Below are positions 10,233-16,557 of a DNA stretch of 64,000 nt, piece by piece; the stretch's first letter is position 1, and each line of letters begins with the position of its first letter. Origin of the DNA: Tsukamurella paurometabola. Its GTDB lineage: Bacteria > Actinomycetota > Actinomycetes > Mycobacteriales > Mycobacteriaceae. Position numbers and translations under genes: made by a program. Under the pieces are notes generated by a model. That model searched no databases and had not been told where the DNA came from. It worked only from the letters and a program-made list of their open reading frames with translations. The stretch lies in NCBI RefSeq assembly GCF_900631615.1, contig NZ_LR131273.1, positions 1,798,001-1,862,000 on the forward strand. The letters run 5' to 3'.

Positions 10233-13200
10233 ATGGCACTGTTCCTGTACCGGCTGGGGAGGTTCGCCTACCTCAATCGTTTCAAAGTCATCGTGGCGTG
10301 GCTGCTGATCTTCGCCGGCATGCTCACCGGTGGCGCGGCGCTCAAGGGCGCCACGGTCGACAACTTCTCGCTGCCGGGCCTGCCCTCGGCGAAGGCGACG
10401 GACATCGTGTCCGAGAATTTCGGCGACAGCGGCGGCGACCCGTTCACCACCGCCTCGGCGACCATCGTCTTCCACGCCAAGGACGGCAAGCTCACCGATC
10501 CGGCGGCCGCGGCGGGCATCGACCGGACCATCGCCGACATCAAGAACCTCACCAAGGACCAGGACGGCCAGAAGGTCTCCGTGGTCCAGGACCCGGAGCT
10601 GCTGCACAACCCGACGGGCAAGCTGGACCCGAACGCGCTGACCCCGGAGCAGCGCTCGAAGCTCGAGGCGGCCACGGCGCAGGCCAAGGACATCGCGTCG
10701 ACCAAGACGCAGGCGCAGAAGGACGCGGACGCGGCGGCCACCTCGTCGGTGAGCCCGGACGGCAAGACCGCGAAGATCACCGTGAACTTCATCGGCAAGG
10801 TCACGGACCTGCCGGACACCCTCTCCGAGGACATCACGAAGGCCCGCGAGGCGGGCGAGGCCGCGTCGAACGGCACGCTGCAGGTCGAGGCCGACGGTTC
10901 CGCGGCCCGCGGCGCCGAGGACATGGGCATGACCAGCGAGATCATCGGCATGATCGTCGCCGCGATCGTCCTGATCATCACGTTCGCCTCGCTCGTCGCC
11001 TGGGGGCTGCCGCTGCTGAACGCGATCATCGCCGTCCCGGTGGCCATCGGCGGCGTCATGATCGCCTCGCACTTCATCGAGCTCGGCACCTTCCCGACGG
11101 TCCTGACGTCCATGATCGGCCTGGCCGTCACCATCGACTACGCGCTCTTCATCGTCTCGCGATACCGGCACGAACTCCGGCGCCTCGGCGCCACCACGAA
11201 GGAGCAGCGGGCCGAGGCCGCGGGCATCGCCGTGGGCACCGCCGGCACCGCCGTGATCTTCGCCGGCCTGACGGTGATCATCGCCCTCGCCGCGCTCGCC
11301 TTCATCGGCATGGACTTCCTCGGCCAGATGGGCGTCGCCGCCGCGTGGGGCGTGTTCATCGCCGTCATCGTGGCGCTGACCCTGCTCCCGGCCCTGCTGG
11401 GCCTGTTCGGATCCAAGGTGTTCGCCGGCCGGGTCAAGGGCCTGCACCCGCAGGACACCGACCAGGGCGAGGGCCGCGTCGCCAACGGCCTGCGCTGGGC
11501 CAACCTGGTCAAGAAGGTCCCCGTCGTCACCCTCGTCGCGGGCGTCGCCATCCTCGGCATCCTCGCCATCCCGATGAAGGACATGAAGACCGCCCTGCCC
11601 GGCTCGGGCATGAGCGAGAAGAGCACGTCGGAGCGCCAGGCCTACGACCTCATCGCCGACGCCTGGGGCAAGGGCGCCAACGGCACCCTCCTCGTCGCGG
11701 TCGACGGTGCGGGGGCCCAGCCGAATCAGCGCCTGGGCGCCTACAAGCAGATCGTCGACCAGCTGAACAGCAACCCGGCGATCGCGCCGCTGATCGCGAA
11801 CGCGCAGCTCGCGCAGCTCGCCGCGGACAACAAGGCCGCCACCATCATGGTGACGCCCAAGTCCGGGCCCAACGACGACGACACCAAGACGCTGGTGACC
11901 AAGCTCCGGAACATGGTCAACGGCGACGCCGGGACCAAGGCCCGGCTCGGCGTGGATCTCGGTGTCGCGGGAAACACCGCCATCGAGATGGACATCTCCG
12001 AGAAGCTCGGCGATGCGTTGTGGATCTACCTCGGGATCGTGATCGGGCTGGCGTTCCTGCTGCTGCTCCTGGCGTTCCGGTCGATCCTGGTGCCGCTGAC
12101 CGCGGTCCTCGGCTTCCTGCTGTCGGTGGTCGCCACGTTCGGCGTGACCTCCGCGATCTTCACCGACGGTGCCCTCGGGCTCATCGACAACACGCAGCCG
12201 CTGGTCTCGTTCCTGCCGATCTTCCTGATCGGCATCGTCTTCGGCCTCGCGATGGACTACCAGGTGTTCCTCGTCTCCCGCATGCGTGAGGAGTTCGTGC
12301 ACACCGGCGACGCGACGAAGTCGGTCGTGACGGGTGTGCAGTACGGCGCCCGCGTGGTGACCGCGGCCGCGATCATCATGATCTCGGTCTTCGCCTCGTT
12401 CATCCTCAACGAGCAGGTCTTCATCAAGGAGATCGGCTTCGGCCTCGCCGCCGCCGTCCTGCTGGACGCCTTCGTCGTGCGGATGGTGATCATCCCGTCG
12501 GTGATGACGCTGCTCGGCAAGTGGGCGTGGTGGCTGCCGAAGTGGCTCGACAAGATCCTGCCGAACGTCGACATCGAGGGCGAGGCCCTCGTGGCGCAGC
12601 TCGGACGCGGCGACGCGAACGCGGACACCGCCGGGTTCCCCGCGCCGATCACGGCGGAGATCCCCGTGCCCACTGAGCCGCTCGTCGCCGCCGGCCCGAC
12701 GGACGTCCACGCGCGCGGCGCCGCCCGGGTGGAGCCCGCAACGGTGAACGGCCACGTCAACGGTGTCGACCGGCCCACGACCGCCCCGACGGCACCGGTG
12801 CCGCTCGTGCCGCTCGGCAAGGACGACGAGCACGTGACGGCGCAGGCCCCCGTGTACGCCGACACGGAGCAGGTCGCCGCGGCGGCGGAGACGCCGGCGA
12901 CGACCGCGCCGGACACCGGCGAGTACCCCGTCGCCCGGCCCGGGACGCCGCACCCGGACCAGACCGTGACCGGGCCGATCCGCGCACGCGACCGGACGCG
13001 CGACGAGATCGCGCAGCTGCGCGAGCAGAACAGGGCGATCGCGGCGGAGCTCAGCGCGCTGCGCTCCGACTACCGCTCGATGGCCAGCCGCACGCGGCTG
13101 CAGAGCGAGCACATCAGCGACCCCACGCGGTTCGAGATCGAGGGTCGCCTCGAGGGGCCCGACGGTCCGCTCGGCCGCGCCGGCCGGCTGCTCACGCCGC

Positions 13201-14384
13201 ACGGCGAGATGCTGACCCCCGCATTCATCCCCGTCGGTACCAAGGCGACGGTGAAGACGGTGCTGCCTGAGGCGGTCTCGGAGCTGGGTGCGCAGGCGGT
13301 TCTGGCGAATGCGTACCACCTGTACCTGCAGCCCGGGCCGGAGATCGTGGAGCAGGCCGGCGGCCTGGGCGCGTTCATGAACTGGGACGGCCCCACGTTC
13401 ACCGATTCCGGTGGCTTCCAGGTGATGTCGCTCGGCTCCGGCTTCAAGAAGGTCATCGACATGACCGGCGGCGGTGAGGAGTTGCAGGGCGACGACGCGA
13501 TCGCCGAGGGCAAGGACCGGCTCTCGCGGGTCGATGACGACGGCGTGACCTTCCTCAGCCACCTCGACGGCACGGAGCACCGGTTCACGCCGGAGCGCTC
13601 GATGCAGATCCAGCATCAGCTGGGCGCCGACGTGATCTTCGCGTTCGACGAGCTGACCACGCTGCACAACACGCGCGCCTACCAGGTGGAGTCGCTGGAG
13701 CGGACCCGCCTGTGGGCCCGGCGCTGCCTGTCGGAGCACAACTGGCTCACCGCGCAGCGGCACGACGCGATCTCCCTCTGGGGTGTGGTGCAGGGCGCGC
13801 AGTACGAGGACCTGCGCCGCAAGGCGGCCCGCGACCTGCGGGCGCTCAGCGAGGAGGACCGGCTCGCCGGCGGCCTCGGCTTCGGCGGCTACGGCATCGG
13901 CGGCGCGCTGGAGAAGGCGAACCTGTCGACCATCGTGCGCTGGGTGAATCAGGAGCTCGAGGAGGACAAGCCGAAGCACCTGCTGGGCATCTCCGAGCCG
14001 GACGACATCTTCGCGGCGGTGGAGCAGGGCATCGACACCTTCGACTGCGTCTCGCCGTCGCGCGTGGCCCGCAACGGCGCGATCTACTCGCTCGACGGCC
14101 GGTACAACGTGACCAACTCGCGGTTCAAGACGGACTTCCGGCCGCTGGACCCGGAGACGGAGAACTACACCTCGCAGTACACCCGTGCGTACATCCATCA
14201 CCTGTTCAAGGCGAAGGAGAGCCTGGCGGCCACGCTGTGCACCATCCATAACGAGCAGTTCATCGTCTCGCTGGTCGCGAAGATCCGGCAGTCGATGCTC
14301 GACGGGACGTACTGGGAGTTCAAGGAGGAGTTCCTGGGCCGCTACTACAAGGGCACCCAGCAGCACCTCGCCACGTCCGACTAG
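10233..14384 (+). CDS. MMPL-family transporter fused in frame to tRNA-guanine transglycosylase
   Basis: One uninterrupted frame of 1383 residues. Residues 1 to about 783 are a complete MMPL/RND transporter: a first membrane helix, a soluble loop, a helix bundle with the GLAVTIDYALF signature, a second loop, and a bundle with GLAMDYQVFLVSRMREEF. Such proteins export lipids. Residues about 784-915 are an Ala/Pro/Thr-rich linker and 919-950 a probable coiled coil (RDEIAQLREQNRAIAAEL). From about 960 to the end is a full TGT, the tRNA base-exchange enzyme, with DSGGFQ (Asp1058), VVQGAQYEDLR and nucleophile motif FDCVSPSR (Asp1271). The zinc cysteines expected at 1309, 1311 and 1314 are Thr, Asn and Ser; His1339 remains. 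An internal ATG at 13080 could start a free 434-residue TGT, but has no ribosome site. The C-terminus of MMPL proteins is cytosolic, so a tethered TGT is topologically possible. Confidence 0.85.
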   Translation: MALFLYRLGRFAYLNRFKVIVAWLLIFAGMLTGGAALKGATVDNFSLPGLPSAKATDIVSENFGDSGGDPFTTASATIVFHAKDGKLTDPAAAAGIDRTIADIKNLTKDQDGQKVSVVQDPELLHNPTGKLDPNALTPEQRSKLEAATAQAKDIASTKTQAQKDADAAATSSVSPDGKTAKITVNFIGKVTDLPDTLSEDITKAREAGEAASNGTLQVEADGSAARGAEDMGMTSEIIGMIVAAIVLIITFASLVAWGLPLLNAIIAVPVAIGGVMIASHFIELGTFPTVLTSMIGLAVTIDYALFIVSRYRHELRRLGATTKEQRAEAAGIAVGTAGTAVIFAGLTVIIALAALAFIGMDFLGQMGVAAAWGVFIAVIVALTLLPALLGLFGSKVFAGRVKGLHPQDTDQGEGRVANGLRWANLVKKVPVVTLVAGVAILGILAIPMKDMKTALPGSGMSEKSTSERQAYDLIADAWGKGANGTLLVAVDGAGAQPNQRLGAYKQIVDQLNSNPAIAPLIANAQLAQLAADNKAATIMVTPKSGPNDDDTKTLVTKLRNMVNGDAGTKARLGVDLGVAGNTAIEMDISEKLGDALWIYLGIVIGLAFLLLLLAFRSILVPLTAVLGFLLSVVATFGVTSAIFTDGALGLIDNTQPLVSFLPIFLIGIVFGLAMDYQVFLVSRMREEFVHTGDATKSVVTGVQYGARVVTAAAIIMISVFASFILNEQVFIKEIGFGLAAAVLLDAFVVRMVIIPSVMTLLGKWAWWLPKWLDKILPNVDIEGEALVAQLGRGDANADTAGFPAPITAEIPVPTEPLVAAGPTDVHARGAARVEPATVNGHVNGVDRPTTAPTAPVPLVPLGKDDEHVTAQAPVYADTEQVAAAAETPATTAPDTGEYPVARPGTPHPDQTVTGPIRARDRTRDEIAQLREQNRAIAAELSALRSDYRSMASRTRLQSEHISDPTRFEIEGRLEGPDGPLGRAGRLLTPHGEMLTPAFIPVGTKATVKTVLPEAVSELGAQAVLANAYHLYLQPGPEIVEQAGGLGAFMNWDGPTFTDSGGFQVMSLGSGFKKVIDMTGGGEELQGDDAIAEGKDRLSRVDDDGVTFLSHLDGTEHRFTPERSMQIQHQLGADVIFAFDELTTLHNTRAYQVESLERTRLWARRCLSEHNWLTAQRHDAISLWGVVQGAQYEDLRRKAARDLRALSEEDRLAGGLGFGGYGIGGALEKANLSTIVRWVNQELEEDKPKHLLGISEPDDIFAAVEQGIDTFDCVSPSRVARNGAIYSLDGRYNVTNSRFKTDFRPLDPETENYTSQYTRAYIHHLFKAKESLAATLCTIHNEQFIVSLVAKIRQSMLDGTYWEFKEEFLGRYYKGTQQHLATSD

Positions 14385-14418: not shown

Positions 14419-15408
14419 ATGCCCCACGTCGTCGCGCTGCCCGTCTGCGACGGGATGACGATGCTCGAATACGGCACGGTCGTCGAAGCGCTGGGCTTCG
14501 CGTGGAACGACCTGCCGTCGCTCGGGTACGACGTGCGCGGCTGCGGCCCGGTCGACGGGGTGCGGACGCTCGGCGGCGCCGTCCTGCACCCGGCGTACGG
14601 CCTCGACGAGATCGCGGGCGCCGATACCGTCATCATGACTGCGGTCACGGACCCGCGGACCGACTCGAACCCGGAGTGGCACGAACCGCTGCGCGCGGCC
14701 GCGGCGAACGGCGCGCGGATCGTCTCCATCTGCACCGGCGCGTTCGCGCTCGCCGGGGCGGGCCTCCTCGACGGTCGGCGCGCCACCACGCACTGGCGGC
14801 ACGCGGGCCTGCTGCAGTACCGCTTCCCCCGGGTGCACGTGACGCCCTCGGAGCTGTACATCCAGGACGGGCCGGTGCTCACCGGCGCGGGTTCGGCGGC
14901 GGGCCTGGACCTGTGCCTGCATCTGATCCGCAGCGACCACGGCGCGGGCGCCGCGAACGAGGTGGCGCGCCGCCTCGTGGTCGCGCCGCACCGCGACGGC
15001 GACCAGTCGCAGTTCGTCAACATCGACACGCTCCGGCCCGATATGGACAAACGCTTCGCCGACTTCCTCCAGGGGCTCGCGCACGGCATCGGCGGCGTCA
15101 AGGGGCTCGACGACATGGCGGCCCGCGCGGGCGTCTCGCGCCGGACCCTGCACCGCCGGTTCCGGCAGTACACCGGCGTCGCGCCACTGGAATGGCTGAT
15201 GCGGCAACGGGTCTACCGCGCGATGCGCCTGCTGGAGACGACCAACGACTCCGTCACGGCGATCACCGGCCGCGCGGGCTTCGACGCGGAGGAGACGCTG
15301 CGATACCACTTCAAGCGGCAGACCGGGTTGGCCCCGACGGCCTATCGCGAGCGGTTCCGCGGTAGCGAGGTGGGCCGCAGCGCGGGCCGGCCCGTGGCCG
15401 GATCTTGA
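14419..15408 (+). CDS. GlxA family transcriptional regulator (DJ-1/PfpI plus AraC HTH)
   Basis: Cytoplasmic regulator of 329 residues. The N-terminal half is a DJ-1/PfpI domain with the nucleophile-elbow-like SICTGAFALAGAGLLDGR and the following TTHW block. The C-terminal 100 residues form an AraC double helix-turn-helix (DDMAARAGVSRRTLHRRFRQ, then AGFDAEETLRYHFKRQTG). Members respond to small molecules such as amines or reactive compounds. The target here is unknown, and no regulated gene is obvious beside it apart from a possible 68-residue gene downstream. A -10 element 6 bases before the ATG suggests leaderless translation. Confidence 0.9.
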   Translation: MPHVVALPVCDGMTMLEYGTVVEALGFAWNDLPSLGYDVRGCGPVDGVRTLGGAVLHPAYGLDEIAGADTVIMTAVTDPRTDSNPEWHEPLRAAAANGARIVSICTGAFALAGAGLLDGRRATTHWRHAGLLQYRFPRVHVTPSELYIQDGPVLTGAGSAAGLDLCLHLIRSDHGAGAANEVARRLVVAPHRDGDQSQFVNIDTLRPDMDKRFADFLQGLAHGIGGVKGLDDMAARAGVSRRTLHRRFRQYTGVAPLEWLMRQRVYRAMRLLETTNDSVTAITGRAGFDAEETLRYHFKRQTGLAPTAYRERFRGSEVGRSAGRPVAGS

Positions 15409-15465: not shown

Positions 15466-15672
15466 ATGCGGATTCAGCAGATGAGGAAGGTCTTCGGCGG
15501 CACCCGGGCAGCGCCGACGACGAACGCGCGCCCGGGATGGATGCGGGAGTTCGCCTCCGGCATCGCGGCGGGCAACCTCGTCCGCCACGGTGCGGGCGTG
15601 CCCGGCTCGCACGGCTCGCGGATCTGCGAGCGGCCCCGTCTCGCGCCGGCGCGGCCCGCGTCAGAGCGGTAG
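15466..15672 (+). CDS. Possible small basic protein (68 aa), leaderless
   Basis: A short frame in the 252-base gap between the GlxA-type regulator and gluQ. Support: TAGCGT (15453-15458) ends 7 bases before the ATG, the same promoter geometry as neighbouring leaderless genes, and third codon positions are strongly G/C as in real genes here. Against: no recognisable domain, no ribosome site, low complexity, and a 12-base convergent overlap with gluQ. The product would be basic (many Arg). I do not recognise it and it may be noncoding. Confidence 0.28.
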
Positions 15673-16557
15673 CGTCCAGGGCTCGCGGGGCAGCCGCGCG
15701 GGGTCGAAGCCGTCCAGCATCTCCCGTGGCGTGCGCCCGCGCAGCCCCAGGCTCGCAGCGAGTTCGGGTAGTACCACCGCCGGCCCGCCGCGCTGCGCGA
15801 GGGTGACGGCACCGTCGCGCTTCGCGAGCCGGGCGCCGGTGGGCCCCAGCACCATCGGCACATGTGCGTACGACGGTGGCGGGTCGCCGACGAGCCGCCC
15901 CGCGACGGCCGAGCGCGGTGTGGCGGACAGCAGTGTGCTCAGGTACGCCTGGCGGGGCGCGGAGGAGAGCAGGTCGTCGCCGCGCACCACCTGGTCGACG
16001 CCCTGCGCGGCGTCGTCGACCACGACGGCCAGGTTGTAGGCGTACGTCCCGTCGCCGCGGCGCAACACGAAATCGTCCACCGCGCCGGTGTACTCGCCGT
16101 GCAGCAGATCCGTCACGGTGAACGACGAGACCGTCGACCGCAGGCGCACCGCCGCCGGCCGCTCCCGCCGCCGGACCTCCCGCTCGGCCTCCGTGAGGTC
16201 GCGGCAGGTGCCGGGGTACGCCCCCTCCGGGGCGTGCGGCGCCGACGGGGCCGCGAGGATCTCCCGCCGCGTGCAGTAGCACTCGTAGACGTCGAGCCGG
16301 TCCAGCGCCGCCGCGTAGCGGTCGGTGCGCTCGGACTGCCGCACCACGTCGCCGTCCCAGTCGAGGCCCAGTGCGGCGAGGTCGGCGAGCTGGCGGGCCT
16401 CGGCTCCGTCGGCCGTGCGGGCGGTATCGAGGTCCTCGATCCGGAGCAGGAAGTCCCGCCCCGTCGAGCGGGCGAAGAGCCACGCGAGGAGCGCGGTGCG
16501 CAGGTTCCCGACGTGCAGGTCGCCCGAGGGGCTCGGCGCGTACCGTCCAGCTGTCAC
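15661..16557 (-). CDS. gluQ: Glutamyl-Q tRNA(Asp) synthetase
   Basis: Paralogue of the GluRS catalytic core (298 residues, no anticodon-binding domain) that attaches glutamate to queuosine-34 of tRNA-Asp. Class I motifs are present: [14 protein letters not shown] (HIGH-type HVGN, residues 15-18) and [10 protein letters not shown] (KMSKS-type). The zinc site CYCTRRE ... YPGTC is intact, unlike that of the TGT domain 1.3 kb away. The start is GTG at 16557, which gives the [13 protein letters not shown]-terminus typical of the family. A 9-base gap separates it from the WYL regulator upstream on the same strand. Its presence implies that queuosine-containing tRNA is made or salvaged. Confidence 0.93.

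What the first reader, a model, noticed from the sequence alone, without database searches (positions are those of the whole stretch)
10233..14384. A complete MMPL lipid transporter and a complete tRNA-guanine transglycosylase in one reading frame
The frame runs without a stop from the MMPL start at 10233 to the TGT stop at 14384 (1383 codons). Both halves look full length: MMPL with both GxxxDY signatures, TGT with its Asp general base and Asp nucleophile. An Ala/Pro/Thr linker and a coiled coil join them. I know of no described MMPL-TGT protein. The MMPL C-terminus is cytosolic, so the arrangement could anchor tRNA base exchange to the membrane or to mycolate transport complexes. Alternatives: a lost stop codon with internal initiation at 13080, or a sequencing error that removed a stop.
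Basis: partly seen in the sequence, partly recalled or inferred. Interest (0 to 1): 0.85.

Follow-up and report, generated by a model that had tools for sequence, protein, structure and literature searches.

The report
Membrane exporters fused to tRNA enzyme
In the bacterial genus Tsukamurella the enzyme that swaps a base in tRNA is fused to the tail of a lipid-type exporter, and damaged copies of the same tail sit on other exporters, so a tRNA enzyme seems to have become a reusable membrane-protein part.

Summary
The frame is real: 1383 codons hold a whole MMPL exporter, a linker, a zipper-like coil and a whole TGT. It is not a lost stop: 14 of 16 Tsukamurella genomes examined have it in one open frame; the other two are broken by contig ends or a frame change. 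Nor is it unreported: Quaiyum et al. 2024 name an MMPL-TGT and an MFS-TGT in Tsukamurella.

My searches found no account of the rest. This genome has three exporter-coil-TGT proteins, and the genus has five kinds. Within the genus only the window's type (A) keeps every tested catalytic residue. The coil's zipper core is conserved in 39 of 39 sequences. An MMPL lies under 500 bp upstream of a separate tgt in 28 of 41 genomes of one related genus and 4 of 34 others, as cmpL4 does in Corynebacterium glutamicum: the fusion joined neighbours.

Best reading: A is the cell's only intact TGT, tied to an exporter and fed by salvaged queuine; the copied tails are zipper-plus-pseudo-TGT pairing modules. 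Tethering follows from topology; pairing between paralogs is inference.

The parts
10233..12590 (+). MMPL (RND) exporter domain, residues 1-786, 12 hydropathy segments
   Evidence: Pfam PF03176; hydropathy; tree places it with tgt-linked MMPLs of other genera, support 87-88
12591..12986 (+). Ala/Pro/Thr-rich linker, fast evolving but coding
   Evidence: GC3 0.95 in frame; linker dN/dS 0.26-0.59 in 10 pairs
12990..13079 (+). Conserved coil; heptad core residues 926-947 with Asn at an a position
   Evidence: Alignment A1; heptad count, Asn at a in 39 of 39 coil rows; genus-specific
13173..14348 (+). TGT domain, residues 981-1372, tested catalytic set intact (D1058, S1059, D1139, Q1187, G1224, D1271), zinc cysteines absent
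   Evidence: PF01702 and TIGR00430; aligned motif columns
13080..13082 (+). ATG proposed for internal start; not present in all orthologs
   Evidence: Met in 14 of 15 A sequences
15661..16557 (-). GluQRS (glutamyl-Q tRNA(Asp) synthetase) gene, conserved neighbour of tgt
   Evidence: NCBIfam TIGR03838 294.5 over 276.7 and NF004315 304.4 over 250; near 8 of 11 stand-alone tgt genes and 10 of 11 named A loci
14419..15408 (+). AraC-type regulator gene between the fusion and gluQRS
   Evidence: FtrA model 314.6, below its cut-off 425; near 8 of 11 named A loci

Best explanation
Supported by sequence: an ancestral mmpL gene lying just upstream of tgt fused with it at the base of Tsukamurella, giving protein A, which carries the genome's only TGT with an intact catalytic set. 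A zipper-like coil stands before the TGT domain. The coil+TGT module was then copied onto other exporters (an EmrB-type MFS, a second MMPL, two further MFS), and there the TGT lost residues of the purine site while the coil's core was kept. Inferred from topology and family knowledge: the MMPL ends in the cytosol, so A holds a TGT at the inner face of the membrane. It exchanges G34 of GUN tRNAs for a salvaged base, most likely queuine, since the genus lacks QueA, has the QPTR transporter family and keeps GluQRS next door. Inferred, less sure: the coil pairs subunits to supply the TGT dimer, and the decayed TGT tails on the other exporters serve as pairing modules that may join A, as non-catalytic QTRT2 pairs with QTRT1 in eukaryotes.
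For: A-type TGT in 16 of 16 genomes of the genus, fused in one open frame in 14 of 16. Outside the genus 108 of 114 family genomes have TGT, one match each, longest open frame 872 (those frames were not each read). An MMPL lies upstream of tgt on the same strand within 500 bp in 28 of 41 genomes of the G017 genus and in 4 of 34 genomes of other genera, 10 of 34 within 5 kb (MMPL hits at E <= 1e-100). A's MMPL groups with tgt-linked MMPLs of three genomes, support 87-88, while C's MMPL sits in another subfamily, 97. Tsukamurella TGTs are one clade (99) and the decayed ones one lineage (100). Tested catalytic columns intact in 15 of 15 A; D156 lost in 14 of 15 B and 8 of 8 C; Q203 lost in 15 of 15 B and 8 of 8 C; D280 is Glu in 7 of 8 C, the change reported for QTRT2 (PMC6165067 passages). 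Heptad with Asn at a in 39 of 39 coil rows. Coil dN/dS is below that of the TGT in 5 of 5 C and 10 of 10 B pairs. QueA 0 of 16, PF02592 16 of 16. GluQRS neighbourhood.
Against: In A the coil is less constrained than the TGT in most pairs (coil lower in only 3 of 10) and reaches 0.57 against sp. 8F; the coil has 38 codons, so single ratios are noisy. The TGT dimer hot spot is only partly kept: F92 is Ala in 14 of 15 B, and the W326 position is Pro in 5 of 8 C. Both catalytic aspartates are retained in most B (14 of 15 and 15 of 15), and one B (L049) keeps D156, so B may have some activity. Coexpressing tgt with cmpL4 did not improve growth of a C. glutamicum mutant in minimal medium (PMC4287177 passage). 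G014's B tail has no MFS within 4.1 kb upstream and G004's C copy lacks the front of its MMPL, so the tail can lose its exporter. QueC models pass Pfam's cut-off in 14 of 16 genomes, though at about 22 bits.
Confidence: 0.6

Rival explanations
1. The fused exporters import queuosine precursors and hand them to the attached TGT (substrate channelling), in line with their listing as transporter candidates.
For: Fusion and clustering of transporters with TGT was the reason for listing them (PMC11130926 passages); MFS, HlyIII and UPS proteins from other bacteria allow preQ0/preQ1 uptake (same passages). The genus should need salvage: QueA 0 of 16.
Against: MMPL and EmrB-type MFS are export families (family knowledge). 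PF02592 (QPTR family) is present in 16 of 16. The attached TGT of B and C lost purine-site residues. MMPL relatives persist in genomes without TGT such as G048 and G058. The Corynebacterium propinquum MMPL tested in that paper did not complement, though its authors allow for expression failure.
Confidence: 0.15
2. The fusion is near neutral: TGT works as elsewhere, its membrane position has no role, and the tails on the other exporters are decaying leftovers.
For: The TGT of the tails has a higher dN/dS than its exporter in 5 of 5 C pairs (0.29-0.38 against 0.08-0.17) and 8 of 10 B pairs; C is found in 8 of 16 genomes; two tails have lost part or all of their exporter.
Against: TGT-domain dN/dS stays below 0.4 in all 25 pairs compared, and the coil is more constrained than the TGT in all 15 B and C pairs. 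The module is found on five exporters, and the B tail is kept in 15 of 16 genomes.
Confidence: 0.22
3. The protein is split in the cell: internal initiation near 13080 or cleavage in the disordered linker frees a normal soluble TGT.
For: ATG at 13080 is just ahead of the TGT domain in 14 of 15 A sequences; the linker is low-complexity and fast evolving.
Against: No Met there in L048; no sigma-70-like site; no purine-rich ribosome site seen by eye before 13080; the coil upstream of that Met is conserved across paralogs. Cleavage cannot be excluded by sequence.
Confidence: 0.1

Closest known systems
Tsukamurella MMPL-TGT Tpau_4044 and MFS-TGT Tpau_0550 (Quaiyum et al. 2024, PMC11130926)
   Same: Same genus and same two architectures; A and B here are probably their orthologs (inferred from gene positions in G009, whose identity as T. 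paurometabola is recalled from its contig length).
   Different: The passages read give the fusions briefly as transporter candidates; they do not mention the second MMPL, the two further MFS kinds, the shared coil or the loss of catalytic residues. Supplement not read.
cmpL4-tgt gene pair of Corynebacterium glutamicum (PMC4287177, passages)
   Same: An MMPL exporter gene with tgt downstream; an MMPL lies under 500 bp upstream of tgt in 28 of 41 genomes of the G017 genus.
   Different: Two separate proteins; CmpL4 is tied to corynomycolate lipids by experiment. Orthology of A's MMPL to CmpL4 rests on gene order; the tree does not resolve it.
Eukaryotic QTRT1/QTRT2 TGT (PMC6165067, passages)
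   Same: A catalytic TGT beside a decayed paralog with the nucleophile Asp changed to Glu, as in clade C.
   Different: QTRT2 is not described there as fused to a transporter, and it also loses the D102 counterpart, which C keeps; heterodimer formation by the Tsukamurella proteins is untested.
QPTR-TGT fusions (named in PMC11130926)
   Same: A membrane transporter fused to bacterial TGT.
   Different: QPTR is a known preQ0/preQ1 importer; MMPL and EmrB-type MFS are exporters.
MmpL10 coiled coil (PMC12183618, abstract and outline)
   Same: A coiled coil drives oligomerisation of an MmpL.
   Different: That coil is a periplasmic extension and the protein is thought a trimer; here the coil is C-terminal and by topology cytosolic.

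Membership tests
Bacterial TGT (TIGR00430), protein A | Score over the curated cut-off | tested here: met
   378.2 against 306.75
Bacterial TGT (TIGR00430), protein A | Catalytic and recognition residues D102, S103, D156, Q203, G230, D280 (Z. mobilis numbers; D102 and D280 appear in PMC6165067, the others are recalled) | tested here: met
   15 of 15 A sequences (the G006 fragment left out)
Bacterial TGT (TIGR00430), protein A | Zinc site of three Cys and one His (recalled) | tested here: not met
   Cys absent in 15 of 15 A, His kept; Cys also absent in 6 of 11 TGTs outside the genus
Bacterial TGT (TIGR00430), protein A | Base exchange at G34 and homodimer | not testable with these tools
Active TGT, proteins B (L070) and C (L071) | TIGR00430 over cut-off and full residue set | tested here: not met
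   190.1 and 111.0 against 306.75; D156 and Q203 lost in both
MMPL/RND exporter, protein A | PF03176 in two repeats, 12 transmembrane segments, DY pair in two helices | tested here: met
MmpL3 (NF052608) | Score over the cut-off 1400 | tested here: not met
   205.0
CmpL4 ortholog | Gene order mmpL-tgt and tree position | tested here: inconclusive
   Order shared; tree weak at the deciding fork
QTRT2-like non-catalytic partner, clade C | Lost substrate site, nucleophile Asp to Glu, second catalytic Asp lost | tested here: inconclusive
   D280 is Glu in 7 of 8; D156 and Q203 0 of 8; but D102 kept 8 of 8
QTRT2-like non-catalytic partner, clade C | Heterodimer with the catalytic subunit | not testable with these tools
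   Needs interaction assay or structure

The most novel reading that the evidence does not exclude
Tsukamurella has turned a tRNA enzyme into a membrane organiser: zipper-plus-TGT tails, one active and the rest dead, pair with one another and gather a mycolate-type exporter and drug-type exporters into one complex around the cell's only queuine-inserting enzyme.
Probability: 0.27. Interest if true: 0.78.

Novelty: new variant of a known kind. Interest (0 to 1): 0.57.

Why it matters
TGT is normally a soluble enzyme. A genus in which the only intact TGT is a tail of an exporter, and in which copies of that tail were attached to other exporters and lost substrate-site residues, gives a natural experiment on how an enzyme fold becomes a protein-pairing part. 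It also makes testable why mmpL and tgt are neighbours in many related bacteria, and whether envelope export and tRNA decoding are coupled.

Tried and rejected
Lost stop, frameshift or sequencing error: rejected by 14 of 16 open frames in the genus and in-frame coding signal. Chance long frame in GC-rich DNA: rejected by Pfam hits in the same frame and by dN/dS under 1 in the linker. Whole-gene duplication of A to make C: rejected, the MMPL parts fall in different subfamilies. A first MMPL tree (simple model) joined C to the long branch L073; the mixture-model tree did not. A stand-alone tgt elsewhere in the genome: none. De novo queuosine synthesis: QueA 0 of 16; QueC models match 15 of 16, 14 over the cut-off of 22 bits, but at 20.7-22.4 bits over 53-56 of 210 positions in 656-1255-codon frames, read as unrelated; QueD, QueE, QueF, QueG and QueH were not searched. 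Coil elsewhere in the family: 22 of 401 genomes rang, 16 strongly (all Tsukamurella, E 1.8e-24 or lower) and 6 weakly (2.4e-5 to 6e-4); 5 of those 6 were read and by eye are neither TGT nor transporter, G304 was not read. A pks13-neighbour check to name the other MMPL of the G017 genus was dropped. Not followed: the other MMPL-like places (L004-L007 and two unfetched places). Rows dropped: L083 (distant TGT, G038) from tree and tallies; L047 (G006 fragment) from tree and residue counts; dN/dS used 10 of 15 other A, 10 of 14 other B and 5 of 7 other C copies.
Full report
WHAT IS THERE. The window frame 10233-14384 (+) codes for 1383 residues: an MMPL exporter (residues 1-786, 12 hydropathy segments), a 132-residue linker, a coil (heptad core 926-947) and a TGT domain (981-1372). 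Third-position GC is 0.95-1.00 in all four parts, so the linker is coding in frame. The second DY motif is GLAMDY; the first is AVTIDY, not literally GxxxDY.

IT IS NOT AN ARTEFACT. PF01702 in 41 genomes, own and relatives, rings in 28, among them 16 of 16 of the genus. ORF analysis shows the A-type fusion in one frame in 14 of 16; G006 is cut by contig ends, so its fusion is unseen, and G014 (83% complete) changes frame in the linker. The search for related loci, with one 10-residue pattern from the coil, names the genus: 37 stretches matched, 26 were confirmed, and 26 of 26 are Tsukamurella, 11 assemblies. In the wider family 115 of 121 genomes have TGT; the 108 outside the genus have one match each, in stop-to-stop frames of at most 872 codons (not each read).

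THERE ARE MORE OF THEM. The own genome holds three TGT proteins, all fused. B (L070) is an EmrB-type MFS plus coil plus TGT. C (L071) is another MMPL plus coil plus TGT. Two further MFS partners occur once each: D in L050 (G007) and E in L063 (G013). By my assignment: A-type tail 16 of 16 (14 in one frame with its MMPL); B tail 15 of 16 (14 with its MFS); C tail 8 of 16 (6 with a whole MMPL); D 1 of 16; E 1 of 16. Misses: G014's B has no MFS within 4.1 kb upstream, G004's C lacks the front of its MMPL, G003's C is cut by a contig end. B's exporter has stand-alone relatives: 23 loci outside the genus in frames of 564-855 codons, none with a TGT match.

ORIGIN. Among 36 family genomes with TGT in both searches, 5 are within 500 bp, 11 within 5 kb and 16 within 20 kb; two of the 36 (G017, G063) belong to that same genus, leaving 4, 10 and 15 of 34 (MMPL hits at E <= 1e-100 only). 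In C. glutamicum cmpL4 has 'the downstream tgt gene', and CmpL4 with CmpL1 serves corynomycolate lipids (PMC4287177 passages; PMC3370651 passages). The mixture-model tree puts A's MMPL with those of G047, G049 and G070, which are tgt-linked, and of G068, which is not (support 87-88), and C's in another subfamily (97); its relation to the Corynebacterium-type gene is unresolved. The TGT tree (51 rows) makes Tsukamurella TGTs one clade (99), the decayed ones a single lineage (100), and E nested in B (91); quick method, long branches flagged. So: neighbours fused, and the coil+TGT module then moved to other exporters.

WHAT DECAYED AND WHAT DID NOT. Columns, kept in 15 A / 15 B / 8 C: D102 15/14/8; S103 15/1/0; D156 15/1/0; Q203 15/0/0; G230 15/14/6; D280 15/15/1 (7 C are Glu). 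Interface: Y330 15/15/7 and H333 14/15/8, but F92 is Ala in 14 B and the W326 site is Pro in 5 C. The hot-spot residues are those named in PMC5395182 (passages); other Z. mobilis numbers are recalled and placed by motif, with the alignment to a PDB chain in view. dN/dS against the own copy: A 10 pairs, TGT 0.04-0.20, coil 0-0.57; B 10 pairs, TGT 0.10-0.37, coil 0.05-0.26; C 5 pairs, TGT 0.29-0.38, coil 0.03-0.09. The coil is the more constrained part in 10 of 10 B and 5 of 5 C pairs but only 3 of 10 A pairs; it has 38 codons, so ratios are noisy. Over all 39 coil rows the a positions read I/L, N, L, Y and the d positions L (one I), I/L/M, L; Asn in 39 of 39. Outside the core it varies: mean column identity of A1 is 66%. 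An Asn at an a position favours a parallel pair in known zippers (general knowledge).

FUNCTION. A has the only TGT with a full residue set in this genome and keeps the tgt-gluQRS neighbourhood (8 of 11 outside loci, 10 of 11 named A loci). The genus has no QueA (0 of 16) and has the QPTR family PF02592 (16 of 16). GluQRS acts on queuosine (family knowledge), so direct queuine salvage is the likeliest source. MMPL and EmrB-type MFS proteins end in the cytosol (family knowledge), which puts every TGT tail where tRNA is. Pairing of tails, and of dead tails with A, is inference; QTRT1/QTRT2 is the model (PMC6165067 passages), and a coil that oligomerises an MmpL is known (PMC12183618 abstract and outline).

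PRINT. Quaiyum et al. 2024 (PMC11130926; passages and abstract) list the MMPL-TGT and MFS-TGT of Tsukamurella as transporter candidates. My searches (open-licence PMC only) gave 0, 3, 1, 1 and 0 papers; of the 3 only this one was opened. The claim that the extra kinds, the coil and the decay are undescribed rests on those searches and on passages, not on that paper's supplement.

VERDICT. A real, genus-wide, already listed fusion that turns out to be one member of a modular set. Interest 0.57.

Noticed in passing
L073, L074, L075, L077, L078, L079 and the Tsukamurella A proteins: TGTs with the tested active-site residues but without the CxCxxC zinc cysteines: 6 of 11 stand-alone TGTs outside the genus and 15 of 15 A. 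A zinc-free TGT branch may exist.
   Followed up: partly
window 15661-16557 and genus: GluQRS present while QueA is missing in 16 of 16 genomes, which points to direct queuine salvage by a bacterial TGT.
   Followed up: partly
L070 (B): The MFS part scores best against oxytetracycline-type efflux models but under their cut-offs (444.1 of 999, 415.1 of 1000); it passes the EmrB model (263.4 over 230.2).
   Followed up: no
   Followed up: partly
L063: E's TGT nests inside B's clade but sits on a different MFS, suggesting a later second transfer of the module.
   Followed up: partly
G421:C1 11373-15022 and 2421437-2425086: Two very similar mmpL-tgt pairs far apart on one contig of a 2.5-Mb genome, perhaps an unclosed overlap of a circular assembly.
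   Followed up: no
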